Positions 31,827 through 56,619 of a stretch of DNA of 64,000 bases are shown here, piece by piece. Source of the DNA: Corynebacterium lactis RW2-5. Its GTDB lineage: Bacteria; Actinomycetota; Actinomycetes; Mycobacteriales; Mycobacteriaceae. The position numbers and the translations under genes were made by a program. The notes beneath the pieces were generated by a model. That model made no database searches, was not told where the DNA came from, and saw only the letters and a program-made list of their open reading frames with translations. The stretch is taken from assembly GCF_001274895.1 (NCBI RefSeq), contig NZ_CP006841.1:372001-436000 (forward strand), written 5' to 3'. How positions within the stretch are numbered: position 1 is the first letter of the stretch; the number at the start of each line of letters is the position of its first letter.

Positions 31827-31828
31827 GC

Positions 31829-33243: not shown

Positions 33244-33262
33244 TAAGTTGAGGCTTACCTAA
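33244..33262. promoter_or_regulatory. DtxR-like iron box upstream of mbtH/exporter operon
   Basis: On the minus strand TTAGGTAAGCCTCAACTTA, 15 of 19 matches to TTAGGTTAGCCTAACCTAA. A -35-like TTGACC lies at 33216-33221, so the box would cover the -10/+1 area. Iron-loaded DtxR would repress the operon starting at 33343. Confidence 0.8.
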
Positions 33263-33342
33263 GCTCACTCCGGTGGAAGTTTTCCGTTATACCGGTCGGT
33301 GAGCGATAGAGATAGATGACATTCGGCTAGGGAGTGTGTGTG

Positions 33343-33570
33343 GTGTCCAGTAACCCTTTTGATAATGAGGAAGGGACGTTTTTTGCCCTCGTGAATGACC
33401 AGGGGCAATACTCCCTCTGGCCGACCTTTGCCGCCGTCCCTTCAGGATGGAGTGTGGCATTAGGAAACTCTGACGAAGGTGAACCCGTCGGAGTATCTCG
33501 CAGCGACGCATTAGCTTACATCGAACAACGATGGACCACGTTACAGCCGGTCCGAAAGACAAGGGATTAA
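33343..33570 (+). CDS. MbtH-like NRPS partner protein (CchK-like)
   Basis: A 75-residue MbtH-family protein. Conserved core: NPFDNEEGTFFALVNDQGQYSLWPTFAAVPSGW, with the NxExQxSLWP and PxGW elements, then the C-terminal helix SRSDALAYIEQRW. MbtH proteins bind NRPS adenylation domains and are needed for their folding or activity. AGGGAG eight bases before GTG 33343 picks this start among several in-frame GTGs (33334, 33340). First gene behind a DtxR box; its client should be the NRPS encoded 5 kb downstream. Confidence 0.93.
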   Translation: MSSNPFDNEEGTFFALVNDQGQYSLWPTFAAVPSGWSVALGNSDEGEPVGVSRSDALAYIEQRWTTLQPVRKTRD

Positions 33571-35367
33571 TTGAGTGTTGTTCTCCCCACGGCGTCGCGT
33601 CGCGAGGCGAGCCGTGATGTGTGTGCGATACTGCGGAAGGATTGGAAGTCATCAGCTGCTGCAGTGACTTTCACTTTTGCCGGTGCGCTGCTGAGTTTGC
33701 TGCCGGTTCTGCTGTTGGCGCAGGTGATCGACGAGGTCGTCTCTGGCGACGCCATTTCCGGTTTTGGTTTTGTCATGTTCTGGGTGGCTCTGGCTATTGC
33801 CGGGTCGGCAGTAGTTTCCGGCCTCGCCGAAGCTTATACGGGGGTCACGATAGCTAGAGTTGTTGCTCGATTGCGCGAGCGGGCCGTGGCATCCGTGCTG
33901 AATCTTCCCCCGGCGACAGTTGCGCTGTTTGGGCGCGGTGAGATTTTGGGTCGGGTCGGCGCCGACATCGCAGTCCTGGTGGCTAGCGCTCGCAAGTCAG
34001 TTCCCTCAACGCTGAGCGCCTTAATGATGGTCATCGTGGCCAGCATGGGAATCGCTGGTGTCGATTGGCGCTTAGCCCTTGCTGGACTCACCGGCATCCC
34101 TTTCTATTATCTGGGGTTGCGTTGGTATCTTCCTCGATCAGCGCCGTTGTACCAGCGACAGCGAAGGCTTGAGTCCGGAGTCATCGGATCGCTGCAAAGC
34201 GCAATTGATGGTATTCGGACCGTGAGATCTCATCGCCTCGCCCCTGCCCGGAAAAGCGTCATTAGCTACCATGCGGCAGAATCGCGTGATACCTCTATCG
34301 CGTCATTTAGGGTCTTTTCGGGCTTGGTTGGTAGAGAGAATTTTGCCGAGTTCATGGGACTCTCCGCGCTCTCGGTGGTGGGCTGGTTGCTTTTCAAGAA
34401 TGGAGAAGTATCAGTGGGAGATATTGCTGCCGCTCTCATTCTCTTTCACCGTCAATTCGTGCCCATTGGAACAATTCTTTTCACTTTTGACGAGCTTCAG
34501 CGAAGTGGAGCTGCGTTGACCCGCATCGTGGGACTCACCCACTTTGTTCGTCATGACCCTCCGCGTCCACTATCCCAGCAATCAATCCCCACGCAGGCTC
34601 CGGTGTTGGATGTGCGAGGCCTGAACTATTCATATTCGGACGGCCCGAAAGTGTTGAAGGGCTTGGATTTTACGGTCGAAGCAGGTCAAACTGTGTGCCT
34701 CGTAGGTCGTTCAGGTGCTGGCAAGTCGACTGTCGCCGGAATATTGTCGGGAACCCTGGAGCTTGCAGAACGGGGTGTCATCACCGTCGATGGTCGAGAT
34801 GTCGTGGACATGTCCGACGAGGAACGCAGTGGGATGTTTTGCGTTGCCGCGCAGGAAAATTACGTCTTCTCAATGAGTGTGAGAGAAAACCTGCGGCTAG
34901 CGCAGGAGGCCGCCAGCGATGCTGAAATCTGGCACGCCTTACATCTCACTGGCGCGGATCAGTGGTGCGCCTCTTTACGTCATGAAGACAAACAGGGCTT
35001 AGACACAATGCTGGGGGAGGGGGGACTTCATATCGACGCCGTGGCAGCGCAACGGATGGCATTGGCCAGAGTGGCATTGTCGCGGGCTGGCGTCGTAATT
35101 CTTGATGAATCGACATCTGAAGGTGATGCTGAGCCCAATGACATGGAGGAAAGCCTTCACCCTTTTGGCATGACATTGGAGGATGCGGCACATGCGGCGT
35201 TGAGAGACCGGACCGCCATTGTGATTGCGCACCGACTCAGCCAAGCCAGATCTGCCGATCGCGTGCTGGTGATGGAACGAGGGGAAATTGTTGAAACTGG
35301 CTCCCACGATGAATTAATTGGGCAGCGAGGGGCATATGCAGACATGTGGGCGGCTTGGAATGTCTAA
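33571..35367 (+). CDS. ABC exporter subunit 1 (membrane + ATPase), degenerate signature
   Basis: A 598-residue half-transporter: six helices in residues 30-320, ATPase domain from about 345. Walker A GRSGAGKST (379-387), Q-loop AAQEN (426-430), Walker B with catalytic Glu VVILDEST (508-515), H-loop IAHR: all intact. But the place of LSGGQ reads LGEGGLHIDAVAAQR (481-495), so the signature is lost. It starts with TTG directly after the mbtH stop and overlaps the next gene by 8 bases. Its partner shows the opposite pattern, so the two should form a heterodimer with one working ATP site. Equivalent to the coelichelin-cluster ABC transporters CchG/CchI; a role in siderophore export is inferred. 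Confidence 0.88.
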   Translation: MSVVLPTASRREASRDVCAILRKDWKSSAAAVTFTFAGALLSLLPVLLLAQVIDEVVSGDAISGFGFVMFWVALAIAGSAVVSGLAEAYTGVTIARVVARLRERAVASVLNLPPATVALFGRGEILGRVGADIAVLVASARKSVPSTLSALMMVIVASMGIAGVDWRLALAGLTGIPFYYLGLRWYLPRSAPLYQRQRRLESGVIGSLQSAIDGIRTVRSHRLAPARKSVISYHAAESRDTSIASFRVFSGLVGRENFAEFMGLSALSVVGWLLFKNGEVSVGDIAAALILFHRQFVPIGTILFTFDELQRSGAALTRIVGLTHFVRHDPPRPLSQQSIPTQAPVLDVRGLNYSYSDGPKVLKGLDFTVEAGQTVCLVGRSGAGKSTVAGILSGTLELAERGVITVDGRDVVDMSDEERSGMFCVAAQENYVFSMSVRENLRLAQEAASDAEIWHALHLTGADQWCASLRHEDKQGLDTMLGEGGLHIDAVAAQRMALARVALSRAGVVILDESTSEGDAEPNDMEESLHPFGMTLEDAAHAALRDRTAIVIAHRLSQARSADRVLVMERGEIVETGSHDELIGQRGAYADMWAAWNV

Positions 35368-37042
35368 AGAGAAACAGCCGATGCCTACTTCTCCACTGGT
35401 GACTTTGCGCCAACTTCTTGCAAGCAATAAGCGGCTCATCGCAGTGTGCACTGGCCTGTTGAGTATCTATCAGATGGCAGAAGCGCTGATCGCTGTGTTA
35501 CTGGGCTGGTTAGCCCACAACCTCATTGCCAGTGACAGCGTGTGGAATCTACTCGTAGGCATCGTAGCGTTAGGAATAGCGCTAGCCACTGTGTCTTTGA
35601 GCTGGCAAATTGGTTTTCGAACTTTGCAGAGCGCTTCTGCGCGTACTGCCTACGATCTGAGGGAGAAGCTCGTCGCACGTGTTGTCAGTGATAGCGGGCA
35701 CGGTCAGAACAAAGATGAGCTCCCCCGTCAAGAGCTGCCCACAGTGATGGGAGAGGATGTTGTCCAGGCGGTGGATATCATTGAAATCGTTCCAGTGGGA
35801 ATCAGCGCGCTCCTCGGTACGATCTTTTGTACGATTGTTCTAGCGATCATTGACCTTCCGCTTGGGGCGGTAGTTCTGGTTTTGAGTGCCACGGTGTTGA
35901 TGGTGCTGCAGGGGATGTCGCGAGTTATTGAGCGACGAGCTGAGCAGCAGCAAGCACTATTGGCGCGCGTGACTGCGCGCATGACGGACATTCTGCAGGG
36001 GCTACCGGTCATCGCTGGGGTGGCGGGTGCGCACCCTGCCTACAACGGATACACACTGAGATCTGAACGGGCGCATTCAGACGCTCGAAGACTCGCCTGG
36101 ATCAGCGGTGGCTATGAGGCTGTGGCAGTGGGAAGCAATCTGCTTTTGCTCAGCGTGGTCGGTTTATACGCGGGGTATCGGGCCGTGTATGGGGAAGTCA
36201 CAGTAGGGGAATTGGTCACGGTCGTCGCGCTTTCGCAATTTATCGCGGAACCAATGCGGCAATGTAGCCGGATGCCCCGCTACATTGGGCTGGCGCGGGC
36301 TTCGGTGAGGAGGCTGCAACGCGTATCTCCTCCGCCTGAGCTCCGCGAAGGTTATGCAGTTCCCGCGGCACGGGGGCAGGGTGAAGCCATCCGGATTCAT
36401 GGTTCAGGCGAAGTGACGTTCACCGAAGGGCACCTCACAGCGGTTCAGTGCACGGCTCGATGGGCAGACGAGGTTATCGACGCCCTCGTGTCTGGGGAGC
36501 CGACGATGAAAAACCATCAGAACGATACTTCGCCCGCCTCTTCGCCGATGGAGGTGTTTGTTCGGGGGCGGGATGTTAGGGAGCTGTCGGTGAAGAACTT
36601 GCGAGCTAGAATTCTGGCCGAGCCGAGAAATCCTGTGATCTTTGGTTCCACCGTGCGGGATGTTTTGCGGGCAGGCTCGGCGGCAGATGATGCAGGCCGG
36701 GTGGAAGACGATGTTCGCATCCTTCATGTCTTGAGCGAATTGGGGTTGGATGAGTTGTCTCAAGGAGGGGATAGTGTTCTGAATCTCGAGCTCACCGAAG
36801 GTGCGCGTAATTTGTCTGGAGGTCAACGTCAAAGGCTTGGTTTGGCACGATCTTTGCTAGCAAATCCAGAGGTTTTGGTGATGGTCGATCCTCTGTCGTC
36901 TCTGGATTCGGTGACAGCGATGAAGGTGGCGCGTGCGGTGAAAGTGATTCGCAGACATCAGACGACGATTGTCCTTTGTGGGGGTAGGGCATTTCAATCG
37001 GTAGCAGGCAAAGTAGCTCATGTGAAGCCATTAGTAGGGTGA
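35360..37042 (+). CDS. ABC exporter subunit 2 (membrane + ATPase), degenerate Walker A
   Basis: A 560-residue half-transporter with an N-terminal membrane domain (GLLSIYQMAEALIAVLLGWLAHNL and following) and an ATPase domain lacking most catalytic parts: no GxxGxGKS/T loop (about 356-368 reads EGHLTAVQCTARW), Q-loop Gln replaced (LAEPRNP), Walker B with Pro in place of the catalytic Glu (VLVMVDPLSSLD), and no H-loop His (VLCGGRA). The signature LSGGQRQR (485-492) is perfect. ATG 35360 overlaps the first subunit; ATG 35381 is an alternative. It supplies LSGGQ to its partner's ATP site. Confidence 0.85.
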   Translation: MSKEKQPMPTSPLVTLRQLLASNKRLIAVCTGLLSIYQMAEALIAVLLGWLAHNLIASDSVWNLLVGIVALGIALATVSLSWQIGFRTLQSASARTAYDLREKLVARVVSDSGHGQNKDELPRQELPTVMGEDVVQAVDIIEIVPVGISALLGTIFCTIVLAIIDLPLGAVVLVLSATVLMVLQGMSRVIERRAEQQQALLARVTARMTDILQGLPVIAGVAGAHPAYNGYTLRSERAHSDARRLAWISGGYEAVAVGSNLLLLSVVGLYAGYRAVYGEVTVGELVTVVALSQFIAEPMRQCSRMPRYIGLARASVRRLQRVSPPPELREGYAVPAARGQGEAIRIHGSGEVTFTEGHLTAVQCTARWADEVIDALVSGEPTMKNHQNDTSPASSPMEVFVRGRDVRELSVKNLRARILAEPRNPVIFGSTVRDVLRAGSAADDAGRVEDDVRILHVLSELGLDELSQGGDSVLNLELTEGARNLSGGQRQRLGLARSLLANPEVLVMVDPLSSLDSVTAMKVARAVKVIRRHQTTIVLCGGRAFQSVAGKVAHVKPLVG

Positions 37043-37091
37043 ATGCGATGTCGATAAAAGGAGTCACTGAGGGGTTGTTGGACTTTTCCAT

Positions 37092-37110
37092 GTAGGTTAG
37101 CCTTGCCTTA
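37092..37110. promoter_or_regulatory. DtxR-like iron box upstream of the monooxygenase-NRPS operon
   Basis: GTAGGTTAGCCTTGCCTTA, 15 of 19 matches to the DtxR consensus, with an intact left half TAGGTTAGCCT. It lies 51 bases before GTG 37161. Confidence 0.8.
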
Positions 37111-37160
37111 TATGTGCCCGCCTTAGCAAGGTGGTTGGCAGAACTCAGAGAAAGGCCAAC

Positions 37161-38540
37161 GTGACCATCATCACCCGTCAAACGCAGATTAATGCTGAGC
37201 GCGATTTCCAAGGAGATGCTGTACGCGACATCGTGGGGATTGGACTTGGCCCCGGAAATCTAGGGCTCGCAGTGGCCATAGAAGAGCAAGCCCCTGAACT
37301 GGATGTCCTCTTCTTAGAAGCGAACTCAGAGTTCCAATGGCACCCCGGAATGCTCCTCAAAGGCAGCAACATGCAGATTAGCTTTCTCAAGGATCTGGTC
37401 ACCGTACGCAATCCTCAAAGCAGGTTCAGCTTCCTTAACTATCTTCATCACAAGGGTCGGCTGGTTGATTTCATCAACCGACAAACCTTCACTCCAGAGC
37501 GTGTGGAATTTGCCGACTACCTGCGATGGATTGCCGATCGCATCGTCGCGGAAACGCTGTACAGCACCAGCGTGACCTCAATTGACGCTCTTGTCGAGCC
37601 AGATGATGACGGAGCCCGGTTCATCGTCCACGCACAGCAGAAGCTGCAGGATTATGCCGGTGAAAAATGCCAGCGACAAGAAGTGTCAATTCGCTGCAAG
37701 AATGTTGTGGTTGCCCGCGGTCTAGAGAGCAAAATGCCCGCCTGGGCTGAGCATGATGACATTGACACTGAGCGAGTCTTCCACAACATCGATCTGATTC
37801 CCCGAAGCCGTCAACTTCTCAAAAGTGGGTGGGATCTTCGCCGCGTTCTCGTGGTCGGGGGAGGGCAATCCGCAGCAGAAACCATTCGATACTTCCATGA
37901 TTGTCCTCACGTCGGTACGGTGACCGCGAGCTTCAATAGTTACGGATTCATTCCCGCCGATGACAGTCCCTTTGCCAACCGAGTCTTTGATCCGGCTGCC
38001 GTCGATGATTTCTTCGAAGCCCCAGAGGATGTTCGCAGCGATCTGTTGATTCGTCATCGCTATACCAACTATGCGTGCGTTGAATCCGAGCTGCTCGAGG
38101 AATTGCATGAACGTCAGTATCGGGAAAGCGTGACGGGGCGTAAGCGCTTGGACCTACGCCGGGCCACAGAGGTCTTGGGCGCGCGTAGTCGGACCGATGG
38201 CAGCGTTGACGTCGAAATTCGGCACCGAATCACCGGCGAAGTGGTGACGGAAAACTTCGATGTCGTTGTTTGCGCTACTGGCTTTCGCTCGCGAGGTCTT
38301 AACGGCATCCACAGCGGTAGCGATGAATTCAGCGTGACGAGGGACTACGGCGTCACTCGCAATGGACAGCGCGTGCCTGGTTTATTTGTTCAAGGAAATA
38401 CCGAGTCAACCCACGGGCTGGGGTCCACCTTGTTGTCGAATATCGCTACCCGATCGGGAGAGCTCGTAGATGCCCTGACCAAGGAACTACGTGGGGAGAA
38501 CCATCACGTGGATCGGCACCACGATCAAGTTTTTCCATGA
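37161..38540 (+). CDS. cchB: L-ornithine N5-monooxygenase (CchB/PvdA family)
   Basis: A 459-residue flavoprotein that hydroxylates the side-chain amine of ornithine with FAD, NADPH and O2, the first step toward hydroxamates. FAD motif GIGLGPGN (residues 26-33), family stretch FLEANSEFQWHPGMLLKGSNMQISFLKDLVTVRNP (substrate side), NADPH motif VLVVGGGQSAAE (about 230), and the D/ATGFRSR motif (about 372). AGAAAGG five bases before GTG 37161 sets the start; the frame extends to 37131. The DtxR box just upstream implies induction in low iron. Next gene is the NRPS that uses the product. Confidence 0.94.
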   Translation: MTIITRQTQINAERDFQGDAVRDIVGIGLGPGNLGLAVAIEEQAPELDVLFLEANSEFQWHPGMLLKGSNMQISFLKDLVTVRNPQSRFSFLNYLHHKGRLVDFINRQTFTPERVEFADYLRWIADRIVAETLYSTSVTSIDALVEPDDDGARFIVHAQQKLQDYAGEKCQRQEVSIRCKNVVVARGLESKMPAWAEHDDIDTERVFHNIDLIPRSRQLLKSGWDLRRVLVVGGGQSAAETIRYFHDCPHVGTVTASFNSYGFIPADDSPFANRVFDPAAVDDFFEAPEDVRSDLLIRHRYTNYACVESELLEELHERQYRESVTGRKRLDLRRATEVLGARSRTDGSVDVEIRHRITGEVVTENFDVVVCATGFRSRGLNGIHSGSDEFSVTRDYGVTRNGQRVPGLFVQGNTESTHGLGSTLLSNIATRSGELVDALTKELRGENHHVDRHHDQVFP

Positions 38541-38639
38541 CGCCAAAAACACGCCTGGCCGTGAGCAGCCTCTAGTCATCCCTAAACAGGCTCTCCTGCC
38601 GGGCTCGCCGTGCATTTCCCCATCTTCGAAAGGGCCCCC

Positions 38640-41600
38640 GTGACCAAGCCTCTGTCTACGCATGTTCAACTGAGCACGCATGAAAGTGACGTGCTTCGCC
38701 GCTATCTCCAAGAATCGCCGGCTGCCACAAATGACAACCTGGCGCTGGCGCTCGCCCTCGGAATCTTTTATTGGGTGAGTCGCCGAGTGGATCCCGTCGG
38801 CCACGATGGCATTGACGTCGCGTTCATCGACTGCATTGCTCCGAAGCAAGAATCTGTTCAGCATGTACTGCGTGGTGACCAGCGTTTCCTAGAATTGCTC
38901 ACCCTACGTGAGCAGGAAAGTTTCGGTAGCCGGGATCTAGGTCAGCACGGTCAACTATGTGTAGAGGGAGTGGAGGGGAATCGCACTTCAGTGCGCATAC
39001 GAGTTGAAGGAGAGATGTGCGGCTCGCGCAGTTCCCTCGAACCTCAGGACTCGGGTACTCGTGACATCAGCGTGGATATTGAGATCAACCTCCCGAGCCA
39101 TGCGGATGAGTCTTCATTGCGCGCGCTGAACGAATCTGCCGTGAAAAATACTGTGCGTGATGTGCTGGCATTTCCAGATCGCAGTCTCGCTACAGTCGGT
39201 GGCCCCAGCGAGAATGAGCGGATTGAACAGCAGTATCGGTGGAACCAAACGGATCGTGACCGAGACCGCCCTGATCTCATCAGCCTGCTGCTCGATCGCG
39301 CAGAGCGCACCCCAGAGGCGCCCGCGGTGGTGCATGGAGATCTGAAGCTGACCTACTCCGAACTTGTTGCGCACGCGACGTCGGTCGCGAAGGAGCTGCG
39401 CGCCAAAGGCATCGGAGACGGGGAGAGTGTCGGTATTTCGCTCCCGCGTAGTGCAGAGATGATTGTCGGCATTGTTGCCGTTCTTCTCGCTGGTGGAAGC
39501 TTTGTGCCTCTGGACCCCAGTTGGCCAGAATCTCGCAGGGAATCAGTGAGCAGAGATGCCGGGTTGGCATATGTGCTCACAGAGGCGAATTGTGTTGTGG
39601 GAGACTCCTCTGAAGTAGGCGTGGAGTCGGCGAGGAAGCTATTCACTCCGCCTTCTGAGGACGACGTCGCTTATGTCATCTTCACGTCGGGCAGTACCGG
39701 GCGTCCCAAAGGCGCCATGATTCGTCACGGTGCGATCGTGGAGCGTCTGTTGTGGCAGCGAGATCAGATCCTAGTCTTCGGTCAGGACGATGCTTCGCTT
39801 TTCAAGGCCCCACTCGCGTTCGACATTTCTATCAATGAGATCTTCCTGCCTTTGGTCAGCGGTGGGCGAGTAGTCGTCGCTGAGCCTGGAGTGGAACAGG
39901 ATCCCACGCGCCTAGCCCGGCTTATACATAAAGAGCAAGTGACATTTGCTTACCTCGTGTCTAGCGTTCTGGACGTCATGCTCTGGCAATCCGAGCACAC
40001 CAACCTCCTCGAGAGCTTGCGACATCTGTGGTGCGGAGGAGAGATGCTCACTCAAGCGCTGTTTCAGCGTTTTCGTCGGCAGCTGGCGATTCCGCTCTAC
40101 CACGGTTATGGACCGGCCGAAGCGACTATCGGAGTGTCACATGTTATCTATCGCGGTGATGAAGACCGCCTGAACACAAGTATCGGTGTGGCCAATCCGA
40201 ATTGTCGCCTTTATGTACTCGACGAAAACCTGCGAGTGGTTCCACACCAGGAAATTGGCGAGCTCTATGTCGCCGGCTACCTGTTGTCCGAGGGCTATAT
40301 CAATGCTCCGGGTCTGACCGCCAGTCGATTCGTGGCTGATGTGTTTGCGTCGGATGGAAGCCGGATGTACCGGACAGGAGACCTCGTTCGACGACTAGAC
40401 GATGGATCGTTGGAGTTTGTCGGCCGTTCGGATAACCAGGTGAAAATCCGAGGGATGCGCTTGGAATTGGAGGACGTCGAATCAGCTCTCGTCGGTCATC
40501 CCGCAGTGGAGTCCGCAAGTGTTATCGCTCGCGAGGGCCGTTTGCTCGGCTATGTCACGGTGGACAAAGCAAGCACCGATGCCTCAGCACTCGGCACTGA
40601 TGCTGTGCCGATCAGAAACTGGTGTGCTGATTTTCTGCCTGAGTACATGGTGCCGGCGATCGTCACAGTGTTGGACGAACTGCCGCGGACCGTGAACGGA
40701 AAAGTCGATCGCCGTGCACTGCCAGAGCCAACATGGACGTTGACCAATGACAGCCCAGCAGATGCTGAGCGCGATGGGGAGACAGTGGCGCTCATTGCAG
40801 AAGCGATGGCAGAAACCCTGAAAATCCCCTCTTCCGGAGCTCACACTGACTTCTTCGACATCGGTGGGGATAGCCTAAGAGCGATTACGTTGCTCTCAAC
40901 ACTCGGGCGGCGTGGAATTGAGGTGAGCGTAGGGGATATTTTCACTGCCCGTACGCCCCATCAGCTAGCCCGCTTGGCGGAAGACCGCGGCAAACGCGCA
41001 GAAGACCCGGACGATAATCCCGTGGGCGAGGTTGATTCATTGCCAATCCTGAGGTGGTTTGATTCCGTAGCTCAACACTTCGACGGCTTTATCCAGTCTG
41101 TGGAGTTCGCTGTTCCAGATTGCGTGGATGAACAGTTGGCTCGACAGATGATCTCCAAGGTGCTGGATGCCCACCCTGCGCTCACAGCTCGCGTACACCG
41201 GAACCCCTTGCGTCTAGAGTTGCCTGATACAAAGGGCGAAAGCGCAGTCGTCCTAGCGCGGTCTACGGATACCGATGCGTTGGTGTCCCTTCTGGATCCG
41301 GATCATGGCGTGGTGCTCGTCGCGGGGTTGATTCCCGGCAGGCTGCGTCTTGTGGCACATCATCTCGTGGTTGATGGCGTGTCGTGGGACATTATCGGTG
41401 AAGATCTTGCTGCTGCCTACCGGGGCGAGGAGCTGCTCGCGGAGCGCACCTCGTTGCGTCGATGGTCACAACTCCTGCAAAGCGCGGTGGATAGGGGGAG
41501 TTTCGCAGAACAGGCCTCCGCGTCGCTCGCCACACTGCCTGAAGTAGACGAACCTCTACACGAACCCCAGCTTTCATCGCTGACAGACAGCGCTAGCACA

Positions 41601-50201: not shown

Positions 50202-50216
50202 TTGCGGGATTCTCCT

Positions 50217-51224
50217 CTAGCCCATAAGTTCGCGGAGTGAAGGGATAATGTGGTGTCTCCACGTCGCTGGATCGTGCCCTCCCGGCGTGCGAAGGTTGGA
50301 TGTGTGAAAACCGCTGCGGGTGAGTTCGGTTGCAACGGTGTCTACATGACGATGCATGAGGGGCTCCTCGGCTCCAGCAGTGACGATGATGCGTGGCCGC
50401 TGAGGGGATACGTGGGAGGTCGATTCCTGGCCGGGGTCACAGAGTCTTTGTTCCCTTAGGGCTGCGGCTACCGAACCGCCGGCGGGGCCTTTGGTGAGGT
50501 CTGTCTCCGGTTGATCTGCTGACCACCACACCGCGGGGGATTGGGCGAGGACACCCCGGACGGCGGATGGTTGTTCTTCTGCAGAAAGAATGCCGGCTCG
50601 GAGGGCGGCCAAGCCGCCGAGGCTCTGGCCTACGATGATCATTTCGCTGTTTCCGATGACCTGAGGTATTTGCGTGGCGAGGGCGTGGGCGCAGTGTTCG
50701 GAGATGTATTCTTCGCGTCGGTTTTTGGCGGCGGGCAGAAAGAGTCGATTGATTTCGGGTAGCGAGCCTGAGTGTACGGCAAGGTCTAGTGCGGTGGTGA
50801 GGTCGTGAAGATGAATCCAGTCATCGCCGTCGAGGAACACAGCGGTGATTTCTGCGGCACGATCGTCGAAACGGGCAGTACAGCGCCTGTGGAAGATGCT
50901 TTGCTCCAAGCGCAGGCGGCGGCCTGGGAGTTCGGCGATGGCGTGTGAGGGGCGAGATGGCCAGAGATCTCGATTGACGCTATCAGCAGAGAGAATGCTG
51001 GAATGGGGACCTGCCCCGTCGTGGTTGTGTGGATCTGGAATCGCGCGGTCATCAAGGTGGAATCCGTAGGTGACTTCAACGTCTTCGGGGACGTGTACCT
51101 CTACGGTGGATTCTGAGGGGCACAGGGGAATATCGGCTCGGTAGGGGTCCACAAAAACTACGGAGCTGGCATGGGGTGGTACGGACAGATGGTGAACGGT
51201 GGTTGCGTCGTTGTTTCGAGGCAC
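50217..51224 (-). CDS. cchJ: Fes/IroE-like alpha/beta-hydrolase (CchJ-like esterase)
   Basis: A 335-residue esterase of the enterobactin-esterase type: an N-terminal beta-rich domain with VTYGFHLDDRAIPDPHN, then ITAVFLDGDDW, RLFLPAAKNRREEYIS, the nucleophile elbow GQSLGG (Ser201) and a C-terminal histidine in PGGHDPATWRHH (about 320). No signal peptide. Fes-type enzymes hydrolyse ferric siderophores; in the coelichelin cluster the homologue CchJ is proposed to free the peptide from the NRPS, which lacks a thioesterase. The same need exists here. Start GTG 51224; convergent with the NRPS (15 bases apart) and divergent from the formyltransferase across a DtxR box. Confidence 0.87.
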   Translation of the reverse strand: MPRNNDATTVHHLSVPPHASSVVFVDPYRADIPLCPSESTVEVHVPEDVEVTYGFHLDDRAIPDPHNHDGAGPHSSILSADSVNRDLWPSRPSHAIAELPGRRLRLEQSIFHRRCTARFDDRAAEITAVFLDGDDWIHLHDLTTALDLAVHSGSLPEINRLFLPAAKNRREEYISEHCAHALATQIPQVIGNSEMIIVGQSLGGLAALRAGILSAEEQPSAVRGVLAQSPAVWWSADQPETDLTKGPAGGSVAAALREQRLCDPGQESTSHVSPQRPRIIVTAGAEEPLMHRHVDTVATELTRSGFHTSNLRTPGGHDPATWRHHIIPSLRELMG

Positions 51225-51251
51225 AGGAAGCTTACTTTCATCGTTGACGAC

Positions 51252-51270
51252 ATAGGTAAGACTAAGCTAA
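51252..51270. promoter_or_regulatory. DtxR-like iron box between esterase and formyltransferase
   Basis: ATAGGTAAGACTAAGCTAA, 15 of 19 matches to the DtxR consensus, placed 10 bases before ATG 51281 and 27 bases before the divergent GTG 51224, so it can control both genes. Confidence 0.78.
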
Positions 51271-51280
51271 CATTTCCGAC

Positions 51281-52225
51281 ATGCGAGTTGCTGTTTTTGG
51301 CTTTCAGTCATGGGGACATCGGACACTGTCTGCGGTTATCAATGCTGGTCATCAAGTGGTTCTAGTAGTTACGCATCCGACAAGCGATCATCCCTACGAG
51401 CAAATGTGGGCTGACTCGGTTGAGGAACTCGCCATAGAAAACGGTCTCCCAGTCTGTGTTACTGAGCGGGTGGGAGATGACGTTATCGACGCATTGCGGA
51501 CTGCCGCTCCAGACATCATCGTGGCGAATAACTGGCGAACTTGGTTACCTCCAGAGATTTTTAGCGTGCCTCGGCATGGTGCGCTGAATGTCCATGATGG
51601 GCTGCTTCCTGAATATGCGGGATTCTCTCCTATCTTGTGGGCACTGCTGAACCGCGAGACCCATGTTGGTGTCACGGTGCATGAGATGAATGAAATTCTG
51701 GATGGTGGGCCTATCGTTGCCCAGCACGCGATTCCGGTGGGACCAGAGGACACCACGACAGATTTGGTTCTTAAGACCATTGACCTCATCGAACCACTGG
51801 TTAAGCGGGCGTTGAATGATGTTGCCGAAGGGCGCGTTCAGGCGCAGCCTCAAGATCCCAACCGTGCCACCTATTTCCATAAGCGTGACGAGCAGGAATC
51901 TCGCATAGATTTCACCCAACCTGCGGAAGATATCGCTCTGCTGGTGAGAGCACAATCAGATCCGTACCCGAACGCATTTTTTGAGTTTCGGGGCCAGCGG
52001 ATTCGTGTCCTCGCTGCACATGTATCTCGTGGCCGATTTGGGGGCGCCCCTGGTCGAGTGACCGTCCCTTGCGAGGGAGGAATCGCGGTGGTCTGCGGTG
52101 CTCATCGTGCATACGCCCCTGCACCGGCCATTGTGCTTGACCGGGTTCGCCTCGACGACGGATCTGAGCTTCTAGCAACTGAATTCTTCGGGCACAGAGC
52201 AGGATATATCGAACCTAAGGTGTAA
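51281..52225 (+). CDS. cchA: N5-hydroxyornithine formyltransferase (CchA-like)
   Basis: A 314-residue enzyme of the Fmt family. It carries the 10-formyl-tetrahydrofolate catalytic triad: N103 and H105 in NVHDGLLPEYAGFSP, D141 in MNEILDGG. The C-terminal domain is Fmt-like (THF...RIDFTQPAEDIALLVRAQSDPYPNAFFEF). A housekeeping methionyl-tRNA formyltransferase would lie next to def/priA; this copy sits among siderophore genes, as cchA does. It should formylate N5-hydroxyornithine to give the hydroxamate that module 1 loads. ATG 51281 follows the DtxR box closely. Confidence 0.92.
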   Translation: MRVAVFGFQSWGHRTLSAVINAGHQVVLVVTHPTSDHPYEQMWADSVEELAIENGLPVCVTERVGDDVIDALRTAAPDIIVANNWRTWLPPEIFSVPRHGALNVHDGLLPEYAGFSPILWALLNRETHVGVTVHEMNEILDGGPIVAQHAIPVGPEDTTTDLVLKTIDLIEPLVKRALNDVAEGRVQAQPQDPNRATYFHKRDEQESRIDFTQPAEDIALLVRAQSDPYPNAFFEFRGQRIRVLAAHVSRGRFGGAPGRVTVPCEGGIAVVCGAHRAYAPAPAIVLDRVRLDDGSELLATEFFGHRAGYIEPKV

Positions 52226-52290
52226 CCCCTTCCCACTGTGGATAGCCATAGTCGCGTGCTGTGAAATCCACCCGTTCTCACGGAGAAAGA

Positions 52291-53307
52291 ATGACCATTA
52301 AGAAAATTATCGCTAGTGCCGCTGTGGTGCTGACCTTAGGCGCAACCGTTGCCGCGTGTTCGAGCAATGAACAGGACAGTAAGGCACAGGAGTCTCATGC
52401 AGCTGAGGCGGAACAAGGGGCATTCCCCACCACCATCGAACACAGGTATGGCGCTACAGAGATTAAGGAAGCGCCCAAGCGGGTGGTGTCTCTCGGCTAC
52501 ACCGATCAGGACGCATTGCTGGCGTTGGGAGTCACTCCAGTGTCAGTGAAGTACTGGGATGGGATGACGCCGGACGGCCAGGCTGCTGGAAACTGGTCAA
52601 ACAAGAAGATCGAAGGCAATCAGCCGCGTATCGACAAGGATTCGGAAGTCAACGCCGAAGCCATTGCCAAGGACAATCCTGACCTCATCGTGGCCGTGTA
52701 CTCCGATATCGACGAGGACACCTACAAGAAGCTGTCCAAGATTGCGCCAGTTGTCGTCCAACAGGGCAAATACGAAGAACTGCAACAACCGTGGGATGTC
52801 ACCACAGAGCAAATTGGCCGAGCAGTGGGTAAGCCTGAAGAAGCCAAGCGTCAGGTTCAGAAAGTCAAAGACAAATTCGACGCATTGAAGAAGCGTCACC
52901 CAGAATGGGCAAATAAAGAGCTGGGCGTTGCAACAATCGAAGAGGAAAAGCTGGCCGTTTTCTCTGAAGGCGATCCACGGAGTCGTTTCTTCACGCAGCT
53001 GGGCTTCAAGATCAACCCAGCATATGCCGGCATCACGAAGGGTAAGTTCTACGGTGAGGTGTCGAAGGAGAACGCTGACCTCGTGGATTCAGATGTTCTG
53101 ATCTGGGATCAGTTGTCCTATTCCCCGAAGAAGGGCAAGGCTTCCGTGACCGAGGATCCGATTGTATCCAAGCTCCGCGCTGTCAAGGGCGGAGCGAGTG
53201 TCTACCTAGAAAAGGACTTGGAAAAGGCCTTCGGATGGCAGACAGTTCTCAGCTTGGATTATGTGCTGGATAACATCGAGAAGCCTTTGGCGGACGCCAC
53301 ACGCTAG
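52291..53307 (+). CDS. Ferric-siderophore-binding lipoprotein (CchF-like)
   Basis: A 338-residue FecB/FepB-type binding protein. Signal peptide MTIKKIIASAAVVLTLGA with lipobox VAAC (Cys23). The mature part has TTIEHRYGATEIKEAPKRVVSLGYTDQDALLALGVTPV, AIAKDNPDLIVAVYSD and a coiled helix KVKDKFDALKKRHPEW, typical of siderophore-binding proteins. GGAGAAAG before ATG 52291 sets the start. 65 bases after the formyltransferase, probably in its transcript. It should capture the ferric product and deliver it to the permeases encoded on the other strand. Confidence 0.93.
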   Translation: MTIKKIIASAAVVLTLGATVAACSSNEQDSKAQESHAAEAEQGAFPTTIEHRYGATEIKEAPKRVVSLGYTDQDALLALGVTPVSVKYWDGMTPDGQAAGNWSNKKIEGNQPRIDKDSEVNAEAIAKDNPDLIVAVYSDIDEDTYKKLSKIAPVVVQQGKYEELQQPWDVTTEQIGRAVGKPEEAKRQVQKVKDKFDALKKRHPEWANKELGVATIEEEKLAVFSEGDPRSRFFTQLGFKINPAYAGITKGKFYGEVSKENADLVDSDVLIWDQLSYSPKKGKASVTEDPIVSKLRAVKGGASVYLEKDLEKAFGWQTVLSLDYVLDNIEKPLADATR

Positions 53308-53367
53308 CGTGCGTTCCTGAGGCTAGCTCTAGACGATGGTCTGAGGCTAACTCTGGAAAAGACATTG

Positions 53368-53398
53368 AGAGGGTGGCAATGAGCCACCCTCTTTCTTT
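53368..53398. terminator. Intrinsic terminator after the siderophore-binding protein
   Basis: AGAGGGTGGC (53368-53377) pairs perfectly with GCCACCCTCT (53383-53392), then TTCTTTT. It closes the plus-strand unit and may serve the convergent ATPase unit as well. Upstream, TGAGGCTA(G/A)CTCT occurs twice (about 53320 and 53342). Confidence 0.88.
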
Positions 53399-53439
53399 TA
53401 AACATGTCTACCTGTGCTTATCTTCCCTCATTCAAAGGG

Positions 53440-54273
53440 TTAATGGGGGACGACCAAGGGGCCGCCAGTAACTGGGTCGGTGATGACCAAGGCGTTGAGA
53501 GCAAAAGCCTCGTGCAGGATTTTAGGAGAAATCACGTCCACCGGATGTCCACTGGCCAGAATTTCACCATTTTTCATCACGATGAGGTTGTCGCTGTAGC
53601 GGATTGCCAAGTTGAGATCGTGAAGCACCATCGCGACGGTTCGGTTCAATTTTCGACGCAACTTCTGGACGAGCTCCAAAATCTCTACTGACGTTGCCAG
53701 ATCAAGGTAGGTAGTGGGTTCGTCGAGGAAGAGGATATCTGTGTTTTGAGCCAAAACCATCGAAATCCACACGCGTTGCCGCTGACCTCCGGACAAGGAA
53801 TCCAAAGTGCGTTCCGCCAGTTCCAAAGAGCCGGTGAGCTCAAGTGCCTGGCGAACCTCATGCTCATCCGTGGAGGACCATTGGCGCATCCATGATTGGT
53901 GAGGGTGACGGCCTCTGGAAACGAGATCTGCGACTCTAATACCCTCTGGGGCTAGCGGAGTCTGGGGGAGGATACCGATGGTTTGCGCGATATCTTTGCG
54001 CTTCATCGTGGAAATGTTGGTGCCATTGACGTAGACCTCGCCAGCCCTTTTGGGGATGAGCTGAGACATTGCCCTAAGTAGTGTTGACTTACCACTACCG
54101 TTTGCTCCGATAATGGTCGTTATCTCTCCGACGAGGAGGTCTACGTCGAGATTGTCAATGACAGTGCGTTCCTCATATCCCACTATCAGTCCGCGGGCAG
54201 TCATGCTGGGGTGTGGAAGCAGAGATGGTGCCGTGTTGACATTGGGTTTATCGGTGTGGAGTAGATGGCTCAT
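53440..54273 (-). CDS. Ferric-siderophore ABC ATPase (CchE-like)
   Basis: A 277-residue FecE-type ATPase: Walker A GANGSGKST (56-64), signature LSGGQRQR, Walker B ILFLDEPTTYLD, H-loop VLHDLNLAIRYSD; the family text QTPLAPEGIRVADLVSRGRHPHQSW is that of iron-siderophore importers. ATG 54273 overlaps the stop of the permease (ATGA). Last gene of a three-gene minus-strand operon. Confidence 0.93.
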   Translation of the reverse strand: MSHLLHTDKPNVNTAPSLLPHPSMTARGLIVGYEERTVIDNLDVDLLVGEITTIIGANGSGKSTLLRAMSQLIPKRAGEVYVNGTNISTMKRKDIAQTIGILPQTPLAPEGIRVADLVSRGRHPHQSWMRQWSSTDEHEVRQALELTGSLELAERTLDSLSGGQRQRVWISMVLAQNTDILFLDEPTTYLDLATSVEILELVQKLRRKLNRTVAMVLHDLNLAIRYSDNLIVMKNGEILASGHPVDVISPKILHEAFALNALVITDPVTGGPLVVPH

Positions 54274-55367
54274 TGGATTGAGTTCTTTCGATTGCGTTGA
54301 ATAAGTAGATAGATAAGGAACGCTCCGCCGATAGCAGAAGTGAGAATGCCTACGGGTAGTTCAACTGGTAAGAGCGATTGGGTGGCCATGTCTGCCAATA
54401 ACAACAGAGCGGCTCCGGTGAGTGCGGACGCCAGAAGGGGAGGAGCGGAGGAATCGCATAGGCGAAGGGCCAATTGGGGCGCGACGAAAGCAACGAATCC
54501 AATGGGGCCTGCCACCGACACTGCTATGGCGGCAAGAGCGACTGCCGTACCAAGCAGTGCGATCTGTACGCCTCGAATATTTTGCCCCAGGGCGCGGGAC
54601 AGGTTGGGGCCCAACACTGTCACCAAGAGTTGATGACTGATCCACGCTAGAGGTGGGGCCAACAGGAGCACGGTCACAACGACGGGCCAGGTTTTCGACC
54701 ATTGCGCGGAGGCAAGTGATCCTGTGAGCCAGAGCTGAGCAGTGGAGGCATCTCGCAAGTCTGCACGGATCATCAAGAAGTTCATATATGACGTCAAGAT
54801 GGCAGAGATAATGAGGCCGAAGAGAACGAGGCGGAAGGAATCAGTCGCGTGCTTCCACGTCAGCATCCACATGACTGCAGCTGTGATGATCGCACCAAAA
54901 AGGGCTGCTAAGGGTATTCCAATGCCGCTCAGCCATGCTAGAAAACCGGTGGCGCCGGATCCTAGTGTTATGACGGTGACGGCCGCTGCGGATGCGCCGG
55001 CAGTGAAACCTAGAATATCTGGGCTGGCTAATGCATTTCGGGTGACGGACTGAGTGAGCGCACCCGAGAGGCCTAGCGCGCAGCCGACTGCAATCGCGGT
55101 CACCGTCCGTGGCATGCGCCACTCCCACACTACGAGCCGTTCGATGCGGGACCCGTGGTCTGTGAAAATGACCTCGAGCACGCGGGGAGCCGAAATTGGG
55201 AATTCGCCTAATCCGATGGAAAAAGTCCCGAGCACGGCAATTGATGTGAGTAATAGCAGTGACACGCACAATGCGCGTGGTCGCCATACGCAGGTGAAAG
55301 GGCCCACGCGGAATTGTGGACGGCCGGGAACCACAGCCTGAGAGGTGCGGGTAAATGAGGTACTCAT
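54270..55367 (-). CDS. Ferric-siderophore ABC permease 2 (CchD-like)
   Basis: A 365-residue FecCD permease with about nine helices. Marks: EWRMPRTVTAIAVGCALGLSGALTQSVTRNALASPDILGFTAGASAA, WLTGSL, VAGPIGFVAFVAPQLALRL and the closing LPVGILTSAIGGAFLIYLL. The start at ATG 55367 overlaps the previous gene by ATGA; the longer frame to 55538 runs through that gene and is discarded. Confidence 0.92.
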   Translation of the reverse strand: MSTSFTRTSQAVVPGRPQFRVGPFTCVWRPRALCVSLLLLTSIAVLGTFSIGLGEFPISAPRVLEVIFTDHGSRIERLVVWEWRMPRTVTAIAVGCALGLSGALTQSVTRNALASPDILGFTAGASAAAVTVITLGSGATGFLAWLSGIGIPLAALFGAIITAAVMWMLTWKHATDSFRLVLFGLIISAILTSYMNFLMIRADLRDASTAQLWLTGSLASAQWSKTWPVVVTVLLLAPPLAWISHQLLVTVLGPNLSRALGQNIRGVQIALLGTAVALAAIAVSVAGPIGFVAFVAPQLALRLCDSSAPPLLASALTGAALLLLADMATQSLLPVELPVGILTSAIGGAFLIYLLIQRNRKNSIQ

Positions 55368-56359
55368 GAGATGGACACCATCCGGCGTCGATAAACAAGG
55401 GCCATAAAGAATGGGGCGCCCACGAAGGCGAGCACGATGCCCACTTGCAGCTCCCCGGGGCGGGCGATGATACGCCCCACGATGTCGGCGGTCAACAACA
55501 TGATTGCCCCAGACAGAGCAGAAAAGGGGATAATCCACCGATAGTCGGGTCCGGTGAAGGCACGAACGATGTGTGGAACGGTAAGCCCAATGAAGGTAAT
55601 CGGACCGGCGGCTGCGGTTGCTGCGCCGGCCAGAAGGGCGATGAGGGCCATGCCTACAAGACGGGCACGCTGAGTATTGACTCCCAGTCCCGCGGCGATG
55701 TCATCGCCAAGGTTGAGGAGGTTGAGCTGTGGTGCAGTAGCGCACGCAGCAATGATGCCTACAGCGATAAAGGGGAGAACACCCAAGAAAACAGAGAGAT
55801 CGCGGCCCGCTATGGAGCCGATTGTCCAGAAGCGCATGTGATCCAGGCTCGCGTCATTCGTGAGAATGATTCCGCTGATGATGGCACTGAGGACAGCTGA
55901 CAGAGCGGCGCCACCAAGCACGAGGGTTAGTGGGGTCGAGAAGCCACCGCCGACAGATGCGAGTCCGAATACCGCCATTGTCGCGATGATGGCGCCAATA
56001 AATGCCCACAGGCTTGTGGCCCACGCGGAGGTGACGCTAAACAGGCTAAAACTGATGACAACAGCGAGGGCTGCTCCGTAATTAATGCCTAAGATTCCTG
56101 TGTCGGCGAGAGGATTGCGTGTGTGTCCTTGAATCAATGCGCCCGATATGCCCAGTGCGGCTCCAGCAACAAGACCAAGCAGAGTCCGGGGAATGCGCAG
56201 TTCGACGATGATTCTCTGATTCACGTTTAAGGCGTCAGTATGCGTGAAAACGGTGGAGAGGTTTTGGAAGACTGAGGCGACTTCTGCCGTGGGGATGGGC
56301 CGAGATCCGATCATGACGCTCAGGATCGTGCTGGCGCAGAGCAGTATGGCAAGTGCCAC
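55364..56359 (-). CDS. Ferric-siderophore ABC permease 1 (CchC-like), start codon in doubt
   Basis: A FecCD permease of at least 331 residues: ELRIPRTLLGLVAGAALGISGALIQGHTRNPLADTGILGINYGAALAV, FWTIGSIAGRD, AAGPITFIGLTVPHIVRAFTGPDYRWIIPFSALSGA and PGELQVGIVLAFVGAPFF. The first usable start by standard codons is GTG 56359, but it opens inside the first helix and lacks a spaced ribosome-binding site. Sixty-six bases upstream in frame a perfect AAGGAGG (56437-56431) stands five bases before ATA (56425-56423), and the 22 codons between encode a basic, permease-like N-terminus (PPRFRTRFPSRRLVSF). The natural start has probably changed from ATG to ATA. Heads the uptake operon behind a DtxR box. Confidence 0.88.
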   Translation of the reverse strand: MALAILLCASTILSVMIGSRPIPTAEVASVFQNLSTVFTHTDALNVNQRIIVELRIPRTLLGLVAGAALGISGALIQGHTRNPLADTGILGINYGAALAVVISFSLFSVTSAWATSLWAFIGAIIATMAVFGLASVGGGFSTPLTLVLGGAALSAVLSAIISGIILTNDASLDHMRFWTIGSIAGRDLSVFLGVLPFIAVGIIAACATAPQLNLLNLGDDIAAGLGVNTQRARLVGMALIALLAGAATAAAGPITFIGLTVPHIVRAFTGPDYRWIIPFSALSGAIMLLTADIVGRIIARPGELQVGIVLAFVGAPFFMALVYRRRMVSIS

Positions 56360-56422
56360 AAAGCTTACAAGGCGCCTTGAAGGGAAACGGGTACGGAATC
56401 GAGGGGGGTGGATGAGGGAAGC

Positions 56423-56437
56423 TATGGATTCCTCCTT
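56423..56437 (-). promoter_or_regulatory. Shine-Dalgarno plus ATA at the expected start of permease 1
   Basis: Minus strand reads AAGGAGGAATCCATA. The spacing of five bases is ideal and the ATA is in frame with the permease, with no stop between. No ATG, GTG or TTG exists in frame between the upstream TAA and GTG 56359. Confidence 0.7.
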
Positions 56438-56545
56438 GGGGCCGGGCCGAGTAGCGAAGAGCTGTTGCAGGAGATCGGCCTGTGCGCCTTGTGGTGCCGA
56501 TCTGGATCGGTTGCAATGGTGGCGACGAGTGTTAGCTTATATGAA

Positions 56546-56564
56546 TAAGGTAACGCTAATCAAA
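56546..56564. promoter_or_regulatory. DtxR-like iron box upstream of the uptake operon
   Basis: TAAGGTAACGCTAATCAAA, 14 of 19 matches to the degenerate DtxR consensus TWAGGTTAGSCTAACCTWA. It lies about 110-120 bases before the probable permease start; the region between holds no other gene. Confidence 0.65.
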
Positions 56565-56619
56565 GTTTTTCTCTCCATGTGATGGATGCTGTGCATGTTG
56601 CGATATTCGGGGAGTGGCT

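What the first reader, a model, noticed from the sequence alone, without database searches (positions are those of the whole stretch)
33244..56564. Complete coelichelin-type siderophore system in a Corynebacterium
Seen: MbtH protein, ABC exporter pair, ornithine N5-monooxygenase, A-T-E-C-A-T-E-C-A-T NRPS, Fes-like esterase, Fmt-like formyltransferase, siderophore-binding lipoprotein, two FecCD permeases and an ATPase, all within 23 kb. Known: the same set of functions makes up the cch cluster of Streptomyces coelicolor (cchA-K). I do not know of a described coelichelin pathway in Corynebacterium, where the known siderophores are of other kinds. Inference: this strain makes coelichelin or a very close tris-hydroxamate. 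A phosphopantetheinyl transferase is not in the window and must be supplied from elsewhere.
Basis: partly seen in the sequence, partly recalled or inferred. Interest (0 to 1): 0.93.

Follow-up and report, generated by a model that had tools for sequence, protein, structure and literature searches.

The report
Mobile coelichelin-type siderophore island in Corynebacterium
A 26.7-kb stretch of this Corynebacterium chromosome, missing from its sister species, carries eleven genes predicted to make, export and take back an iron scavenger like coelichelin, and a related version that is almost identical in seven other Corynebacterium species has likely jumped between species on an insertion sequence.

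Summary
In detail: eleven intact genes at 33343-56359 (MbtH, exporter pair, ornithine hydroxylase, 3863-aa trimodular NRPS, esterase, formyltransferase, binding lipoprotein, ATPase, two permeases). Four DtxR-type iron boxes occur in the 64 kb, all upstream of cluster genes (0.02 expected). NRPS codes (DINYWGGIGK / DFWSVGMVHK / DMENLGLINK) fit the coelichelin type, with a corynebacterial N-to-S change at the Thr module. Coelichelin or a very close tris-hydroxamate is the best prediction; no chemistry was done. It is not the first in the genus: a 2023 C. striatum paper reports a coelichelin-like cluster. New is mobility. The sister species has tRNA-Tyr and tRNA-Thr adjacent where the window carries 26.7 kb between them. 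A related version differs by 1-5 nt over 13.4 kb in seven species whose rpoB is only 81-96% identical. In single-contig genome G183 it lies between two IS3503 copies with an exact 8-bp target duplication; three other species show the clean empty site. Eight genomes carry captured ribosomal-operon DNA (rpsH-rplF side) matching a home location intact in G037. The window's own copy is an older relative (68% nt) with IS relics; how it arrived is not shown.

The parts
31826..58490 (.). whole segment absent from sister species G090 (26.7 kb between tRNA-Tyr and tRNA-Thr)
   Evidence: window aligns to L182 (G090) up to 31825 and again from 58491, with 251 unrelated bp between in G090; tRNAs
31694..31776 (+). 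tRNA-Tyr, left border of the insertion site
   Evidence: ARAGORN
31847..33199 (-). IS3503-like (IS256 family) relic with split transposase ORFs 32437-33075 and 31890-32378 and imperfect terminal repeats
   Evidence: 84% to full IS3503 copies beside the relatives' clusters; ends; MULE transposase domain below cut-off; family name from the 100% match of the relatives' IS to a C. jeikeium plasmid
33244..33262 (+). DtxR-type box 1 (2 mismatches), upstream of MbtH
33343..33570 (+). MbtH-like protein
   Evidence: PF03621
33571..35367 (+). ABC exporter half 1 (Walker A present)
   Evidence: PF00664+PF00005
35318..37042 (+). ABC exporter half 2 (no Walker A; degenerate nucleotide-binding domain)
   Evidence: motif scan
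37092..37110 (+). DtxR-type box 2 (2 mismatches), upstream of the hydroxylase/NRPS
37131..38540 (+). L-ornithine N5-monooxygenase
   Evidence: PF13434 E=2.7e-98; nucleotide-binding motifs; best solved relatives MbtG and KtzI
38610..50201 (+). trimodular NRPS, A-T-E-C-A-T-E-C-A-T, no thioesterase domain found; codes DINYWGGIGK, DFWSVGMVHK, DMENLGLINK
50217..51224 (-). Fes-like esterase (GQSLG), predicted CchJ-like releasing or hydrolysing enzyme
   Evidence: PRK10439 below cut-off
51252..51270 (+). DtxR-type box 3 (3 mismatches), between the divergent esterase and formyltransferase genes
51281..52225 (+). formyltransferase, predicted hydroxyornithine N5-formyltransferase
   Evidence: PF00551+PF02911; 56% to the formyltransferase of the Nonomuraea gerenzanensis cluster
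52261..53307 (+). ferric-siderophore-binding lipoprotein
   Evidence: PF01497; N-terminal hydrophobic stretch ending in Cys33
53440..54273 (-). uptake ATPase (FecE/FepC-like)
54270..55538 (-). FecCD permease B
   Evidence: PF01032
55364..56359 (-). FecCD permease A
   Evidence: PF01032
56546..56564 (+). DtxR-type box 4 (3 mismatches), upstream of the permease operon
56955..58431 (.). second insertion-sequence relic with 28-bp inverted ends (family not tested)
   Evidence: ends; 77.6% copy in G227 directly beside a 66% relative of the left relic; the one ORF piece scanned gave no Pfam hit
58599..58672 (+). tRNA-Thr, right border of the insertion site
   Evidence: ARAGORN

Best explanation
This 26.7-kb segment between tRNA-Tyr and tRNA-Thr, absent from the sister species, is likely an inserted siderophore island whose eleven genes are predicted to make, export and re-import coelichelin or a very close tris-hydroxamate under DtxR iron control, and a closely related version of the cluster has likely moved between Corynebacterium species on IS3503. 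Predicted working: at low iron DtxR would leave four boxes, opening four transcription units. The hydroxylase would make N5-hydroxyornithine and the formyltransferase N5-formyl-N5-hydroxyornithine. With MbtH and a PptT-type transferase from elsewhere in the genome, the NRPS would load fhOrn, Thr and hOrn, epimerise the first two, and add a second fhOrn by re-use of module 1. The esterase would release the tetrapeptide (or free iron from it later). The exporter pair would secrete it, and lipoprotein, permeases and ATPase would bring the ferric form back. Shown: gene content, codes, box positions, absence in the sister species, near-identity of clusters across species, and one IS3503 composite transposon (G183) with target duplication and empty sites. 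Inferred: product, release step, regulation, and that transfer followed transposition.
For: Domains and order. Codes: A1 DINYWGGIGK and A3 DMENLGLINK in 52 of 52 trimodular NRPSs, A2 DFWN[IV]GMVHK in 37 of 41 other rows and DFWS[IV]GMVHK in 11 of 11 Corynebacterium-like rows (of these only P0011 carries a Corynebacterium name); DFWSVGMVHK is listed among Thr codes in PMC12283262 (passage). Named comparator Nonomuraea gerenzanensis, whose authors compare cluster 19 to coelichelin (PMC5431353, passage): same A1 and A3 codes, plus hydroxylase, formyltransferase, esterase and exporter halves. Four DtxR-type boxes in 64 kb, all in the cluster; 0 of 100 shuffles reach 4, mean 0.02. No IucA/IucC synthetase in the genome; a PptT/Npt-like transferase is present. 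Insertion. Mobility of relatives: 1-5 differences over 13.4 kb in seven species against rpoB 80.9-96.4% in the 21 pairs; IS3503 on both sides with 8-bp duplication GCACCTCC in G183; contiguous empty site in G156, G122 and G059; captured ribosomal-operon DNA in eight genomes, matching the home state in G037.
Against: No product has been measured. The A2 code differs from the usual one at position 278 (N to S); PMC12283262 also ties DFWSVGMVHK to gamma-chloro-Thr (passage), so a Thr analogue cannot be excluded. S. coelicolor CchH itself was not among the sequences I had; Streptomyces trimodular NRPSs are only about 41% identical. Gene order differs from the Nonomuraea cluster, where no MbtH, ATPase or permease match appeared within the 40 kb read. 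The window copy has only one IS3503-like relic, a different relic on the right, and no readable target duplication, so its own mode of entry is not shown. Of the Corynebacterium nasal isolates CAS-tested in PMC11296517 (passages) only C. propinquum made siderophores, so presence of such a cluster may not mean production; which of those isolates carry it is unknown.
Confidence: 0.83

Rival explanations
1. The cluster makes a different tris-hydroxamate, for example with Ser or a modified Thr at residue 2, because the corynebacterial synthetases share an altered module-2 code.
For: Asn278 to Ser in 11 of 11 Corynebacterium-like NRPSs and in only 1 of 41 others (P0112, itself a different code). 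PMC12283262 (passage) links DFWSVGMVHK to gamma-chloro-Thr as well as Thr.
Against: The same passage lists DFWSVGMVHK under Thr-activating codes; the Ser codes it gives (DVWHLSLVDK, DVWHMSLVDK) are quite different. No halogenase is among the eleven cluster proteins.
Confidence: 0.12
2. The cluster is a vertically inherited ancestral trait that most corynebacteria lost; the window's state is original and the sister species deleted it.
For: NRPSs of Corynebacterium type form one clade (7 of 7 rows in the tree, SH-aLRT 100); G037 and G227 both carry the cluster upstream of rpsH.
Against: G090 and five other species examined have tRNA-Tyr and tRNA-Thr adjacent, the window cluster is bounded by IS relics, relatives' clusters lie elsewhere (G149 has this tRNA site empty and its cluster about 0.4 Mb away), and seven species differ by 1-5 nt while rpoB differs by 3.6-19%.
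Confidence: 0.08
3. The near-identity between species reflects contaminated or mis-binned assemblies rather than transfer.
For: G238, G082 and G086 are drafts of about 60-470 contigs.
Against: In G149, G032, G081, G222, G227 and G183 cluster and rpoB lie on the same contig of 1-2-contig genomes, sequences beyond the shared unit differ between genomes, and G183 shows a target duplication with empty sites elsewhere.
Confidence: 0.03
4. The genes are present but the pathway is silent or decayed in the window strain.
For: Transposase relics show age; one relative (G157) has its longest frame cut to 2450 from 3629 codons; apart from C. propinquum no nasal Corynebacterium isolate in PMC11296517 made siderophores (passages).
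Against: All eleven window frames are open and core motifs of NRPS, hydroxylase and esterase are intact; four DtxR-type boxes are kept.
Confidence: 0.15

Closest known systems
cch (coelichelin) cluster of Streptomyces coelicolor
   Same: Trimodular NRPS A/T/E-C/A/T/E-C/A/T with Orn-, Thr-, Orn-type domains and no built-in thioesterase, a separate release enzyme, hydroxylase and formyltransferase genes, iron-controlled (PMC5932044 and PMC9854754, passages).
   Different: About 41% identity to Streptomyces trimodular NRPSs, Ser at code position 278 of module 2, DtxR-type boxes, and an island or transposon setting.
Coelichelin-like cluster reported in C. striatum (PMC10486106, passages)
   Same: Same genus and the same comparison with coelichelin.
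   Different: That paper names it from similarity; in the passages read it gives no codes, boxes, insertion site or mobility.
Nonomuraea gerenzanensis cluster 19 (L120)
   Same: Identical A1 and A3 codes, hydroxylase, formyltransferase, esterase, binding protein, exporter halves.
   Different: Different gene order; no FecCD/ATPase/MbtH match in the 40 kb read; module-2 code DFWNIGMVHK. That L120 is cluster 19 is inferred.
IS3503-flanked pbp2m unit of corynebacteria (PMC7694903, passages)
   Same: Same insertion sequence, cargo shared across Corynebacterium species.
   Different: Cargo there is a resistance gene unit; here an 11-gene NRPS siderophore system.
RUSTI islands of cheese bacteria (PMC5526665, passages)
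   Same: Iron-uptake island exchanged among actinobacteria including Corynebacterium; the paper also mentions an actinobacterial HGT Group 32 with both siderophore acquisition and biosynthesis genes (not described further in the passages seen).
   Different: ActinoRUSTI is an import island inside a proposed ICE; here an NRPS synthesis-plus-uptake cluster and an IS3503 composite transposon.
iuc3 aerobactin composite transposon of Klebsiella (PMC9997749, abstract)
   Same: Siderophore genes between two copies of an insertion sequence.
   Different: NRPS-independent aerobactin (recalled), truncated IS3-family elements on plasmids; here an NRPS system on chromosomes with a target duplication.

Membership tests
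coelichelin-type NRPS clusters | one trimodular NRPS A-T-E-C-A-T-E-C-A-T | tested here: met
   definition from PMC5932044 (passages)
coelichelin-type NRPS clusters | module 1 code of the fhOrn type (DINYWGGIGK) | tested here: met
   identical in 52 of 52 rows; that this is CchH module 1's own code is recalled
coelichelin-type NRPS clusters | module 2 Thr code | tested here: met
   DFWSVGMVHK, a Thr code in PMC12283262 (passage; also gamma-chloro-Thr), but one residue (N278S) off the usual pattern
coelichelin-type NRPS clusters | module 3 code of the hOrn type (DMENLGLINK) | tested here: met
   identical in 52 of 52 rows; assignment to hOrn recalled
coelichelin-type NRPS clusters | no TE domain, separate esterase gene | tested here: met
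   no TE family; esterase 50217-51224
coelichelin-type NRPS clusters | ornithine hydroxylase and formyltransferase in the cluster | tested here: met
coelichelin-type NRPS clusters | direct sequence orthology with S. coelicolor CchH | not tested
   no S. coelicolor record among the sequences fetched; Streptomyces relatives at about 41%
coelichelin-type NRPS clusters | product coelichelin | not testable with these tools
   needs LC-MS; predicted ions
DtxR regulon | 19-bp DtxR box upstream of genes | tested here: met
   four boxes with 2-3 mismatches; consensus from PMC1382209 (passages); binding untested
IS3503 composite transposon (relative G183) | two IS copies, outer target duplication, empty site | tested here: met
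IS3503 composite transposon (window) | two copies of the same IS flanking the cluster | tested here: not met
   one IS3503-like relic on the left, an unlike relic on the right
NRPS-independent siderophore (IucA/IucC) systems known in corynebacteria | IucA/IucC synthetase | tested here: not met
   no match in the whole genome

The most novel reading that the evidence does not exclude
A complete iron-regulated NRPS siderophore pathway (synthesis, export, uptake) circulates among Corynebacterium species as an IS3503 composite transposon that carries a ribosomal-operon scar as a return address of its donor, so that siderophore production, and possibly uptake-only cheating, is a transferable trait in this genus; the window holds an older, independently settled island of the same family whose synthetase has a genus-specific module-2 code.
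Probability: 0.65. Interest if true: 0.75.

Novelty: new variant of a known kind. Interest (0 to 1): 0.62.

Why it matters
Corynebacteria are major members of human skin and nose, and in one study no nasal Corynebacterium isolate except C. propinquum made a siderophore (PMC11296517, passages). A whole NRPS siderophore system that hops between species would help explain patchy production, makes a testable model of how a costly public good spreads and is cheated on, and links an insertion sequence that flanks resistance genes in this genus (PMC7694903, passages) to iron competition. The captured ribosomal DNA gives a rare direct clue to the donor lineage.

Tried and rejected
Considered and rejected: an aerobactin-like NRPS-independent route (no IucA/IucC synthetase); a plasmid home (all 1995 plasmid records that match the hydroxylase are under 60% identity; the esterase matched one record, Nonomuraea; records very near the window may be left out of both); Ser at module 2 (code unlike Ser codes). 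Led nowhere: naming the host species. Structure prediction was not used. Among the families listed, no NCBIfam model reached its cut-off for the ten cluster proteins scanned. The first rpoB comparison mixed strands and was redone. The 251 bp of G090 that stand in place of the insert have no convincing match in the window's flanks, so no target duplication could be read for the window. G155 and G159 carry only the uptake half, formyltransferase and a cut esterase on contigs that end in another repeat; with no hydroxylase found in those genomes this looks like loss, but unassembled sequence is not excluded. On re-check, my first wording that the captured ribosomal piece always stops inside rplF was wrong: it stops there in G149 and G086 and runs further in G032, G238, G155 and G159. 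G032 is only a weak empty-site witness: 29 bp of the right flank adjoin the left one.
Full report
WHAT IS THERE. The window (G000:C1:372001-436000 of a 2.77-Mb single-contig genome) holds eleven open genes between 33343 and 56359 whose families are those of a hydroxamate NRPS siderophore system. The 3863-aa synthetase has three adenylation and three carrier domains and five condensation-family stretches; the motifs of two epimerisation and two condensation domains and of all carriers are intact, and no thioesterase domain was found. One exporter half lacks a Walker A motif.

IRON CONTROL. A scan for the DtxR consensus (PMC1382209, passages) with up to three mismatches finds four sites in the 64 kb, at 33244, 37092, 51252 and 56546. 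All lie between genes of this cluster or at its edges, upstream of a gene, one of them between divergent genes; 0.02 were expected and 0 of 100 shuffles reached four. The genome has three matches to the iron-dependent repressor family. Regulation itself is untested.

WHAT IT WOULD MAKE. I aligned the 52 NRPSs of 3400-3900 aa out of 121 sequences (query plus the 120 listed of 1536 hits) and read the ten specificity positions. A1 is DINYWGGIGK and A3 DMENLGLINK in 52 of 52. A2 is DFWNIGMVHK or DFWNVGMVHK in 37 of 41 rows outside the Corynebacterium-like clade and DFWSIGMVHK or DFWSVGMVHK in 11 of 11 inside it; four outside rows have other codes. Of the eleven, one is the window's and one (P0011) carries a Corynebacterium name; the rest are unnamed, and the ten are 67-98% identical to the window's. 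From memory, the first and third codes are those of CchH for formyl-hydroxyornithine and hydroxyornithine. PMC12283262 (one passage) lists DFWSVGMVHK with Thr codes and ties it to gamma-chloro-Thr too. Nonomuraea gerenzanensis, whose authors compare a cluster to coelichelin (PMC5431353, passage), has the same A1 and A3 codes and DFWNIGMVHK at A2. PMC5932044 and PMC9854754 (passages) give the same module order for coelichelin. PMC9854754 says the tetrapeptide holds two Thr by re-use of module 2; I recall two formyl-hydroxyornithines instead (re-use of module 1), which is what a tris-hydroxamate needs. With that composition the predicted ions are 566.278 and, with iron, 619.189. A PptT/Npt-like phosphopantetheinyl transferase gene lies at C1:~1.204 Mb (NCBIfam matches below cut-off). 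No IucA/IucC synthetase is present.

NOT THE FIRST. PMC10486106 (passages) reports a coelichelin-like cluster as commonly occurring in C. striatum. PMC12188740 (12 of 19 passages) counts 130 NRPS clusters in respiratory corynebacteria; it was not among the 25 papers holding both 'coelichelin' and 'Corynebacterium'. PMC11078359 has coelichelin only in its reference list.

DISTRIBUTION. In 242 genomes of the genus, 40 have any hydroxylase match and 12 (window included) have one at 75% or more; one more has 64%. The esterase search gives 22 of 242 matches at E 1e-10, of which the same 12 are full length at 55% or more. All eleven genes stand in the same order and orientation in the window and in ten other genomes; G086 lacks the first genes on its contig, which starts inside the cluster; G021 is collinear up to the binding protein, with no good permease or ATPase match in the part fetched. 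In G157 the longest frame is 2450 codons instead of 3629, so its synthetase gene is broken or mis-sequenced.

THE WINDOW COPY IS AN INSERTION. In the nearest relative by one protein, G090 (89%), DNA matching the window runs through tRNA-Tyr to window position 31825 and resumes at 58491 before tRNA-Thr, with 251 unrelated bp between. In all six genomes in which I found these tRNAs outside the window (L182-L187) they lie about 0.2-0.7 kb apart; two further stretches (L188, L189) showed no tRNA. That the window gained rather than the others lost the segment is the simpler reading, not a proof. The insert is bounded by an IS3503-like relic (31847-33199; 1353 bp, one full copy in the genome) and by a different relic with 28-bp inverted ends (56955-58431). 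No target duplication could be read.

RELATIVES MOVE. Seven species (G149, G032, G081, G222, G082, G238, G086) differ pairwise by 1-5 positions over 13.4 kb from hydroxylase to esterase, while a 1.8-kb rpoB core is 80.9-96.4% identical in the 21 pairs. G227, G183 and G157 differ from them by 49-72 positions. G037 is 94% and the window 68% identical. G227 and G157 are close species (rpoB 99.2%), so their likeness to each other proves nothing. Four of the seven (G149, G032, G081, G222) are genomes of one or two contigs with cluster and rpoB on the same contig.

HOW. The element beside these clusters is 1380 bp, 100% identical to a C. jeikeium plasmid element annotated as IS3503 (IS256-like; NC_003490.1), with perfect 24-bp ends. 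In G183 it stands on both sides in the same orientation (the right copy is itself interrupted), and both outer ends adjoin the same eight bases, GCACCTCC. Nine genomes match the left flank: G183 itself, four with long matches and four with short ones. In G156, G122 and G059 the left and right flanks are contiguous, with an overlap of exactly eight bases in G156 and G122; in G032 only 29 bp of the right flank adjoin. The four short ones were not examined. G081 also has IS3503 sequence on both sides (left copy partial) and G082 has IS3503 fragments at both contig ends; G149, G032 and G222 have it on the left only in the parts fetched, and G227, G157, G037, G238, G086 and G021 show none by this test. 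So one composite transposon is proven, and for several carriers the vehicle is not seen.

WHERE FROM. Beside the permease gene G149, G032, G238, G086, G155 and G159 carry the same 817 bp with all of rpsH and the start of rplF, 100% identical; G082 has 645 bp of it and G222 only the first part of rpsH. In all eight, the match to G037 runs unbroken from the permease side into ribosomal DNA; it ends within rplF in G149 and G086, at IS3503 in G082, and about 1.4-1.5 kb further on in G032, G238, G155 and G159. Those carriers whose second match is listed also have a native copy, at 77-78% (G149, G032, G238, G155, G159) or 82% (G082); for G222 the listed match at 78% is the native one; the second match of G086 is not listed. 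G037's only copy is 98% identical and lies directly beside its cluster: 4.9 kb at 96.1%, with ribosomal sequence continuing beyond. So the donor probably was a species near G037 with the cluster upstream of rpsH. G227 too has its cluster upstream of rpsH, with about 11 kb between, but its rpsH is only 80% like the captured one.

LINEAGE. In a 26-row NRPS tree the seven Corynebacterium-like rows form one clade (SH-aLRT 100), on the Gordonia/Dermatophilus side of a midpoint-drawn root and apart from Streptomyces, Nonomuraea and Lentzea (the program warns of long branches).

PRINT SEARCHES. No paper on an IS-borne coelichelin-type cluster was seen in the listings; these cover open-licence PMC papers only and some show just the top rows. 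Nearest mobile systems: RUSTI and HGT Group 32 (PMC5526665, passages), the iuc3 composite transposon (PMC9997749, abstract), and IS3503-flanked pbp2m (PMC7694903, passages). PMC8304765 (passages) lists IS3503 with resistance genes.

VERDICT. The finding is real and its chemistry call is likely right, but not first of its kind. The added value is that this family of clusters is mobile within the genus. 

Noticed in passing
L128 (G159) and L129 (G155): Two genomes keep the binding protein, ATPase, permeases, formyltransferase and a cut esterase, but no hydroxylase was found in the genome: possible uptake-only 'cheater' remnants, or unassembled sequence.
   Followed up: partly
L110/L109 (G157): The synthetase frame is broken (longest frame 2450 versus 3629 codons) in a cluster otherwise 99.5% or more identical to the mobile copies.
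   Followed up: no
window 38610-39251: The window synthetase has 214 residues before the start of the aligned first A-domain region, where three other Corynebacterium-like rows have 39-45 and seven rows of other genera or unnamed 40-191; it may be a remnant of a lost N-terminal domain.
   Followed up: no
window 46164-46187 (E2 domain): The second epimerisation domain reads HHAVIDSA in 10 of 11 Corynebacterium-like rows against HHLAVDAV in 30 of 41 others.
   Followed up: no
L105 (G037): A roughly 10-kb extra segment sits between the binding-protein and ATPase genes of the home-state cluster.
   Followed up: no
L188:1174-3551 (G227): Relatives of both window IS elements lie side by side near nusG, about 45 kb from that genome's cluster.
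   Followed up: no
NZ_LR134468.1:89500-90753 (H1): A Tsukamurella tyrosinosolvens plasmid encodes a 49% relative of the hydroxylase.
   Followed up: no
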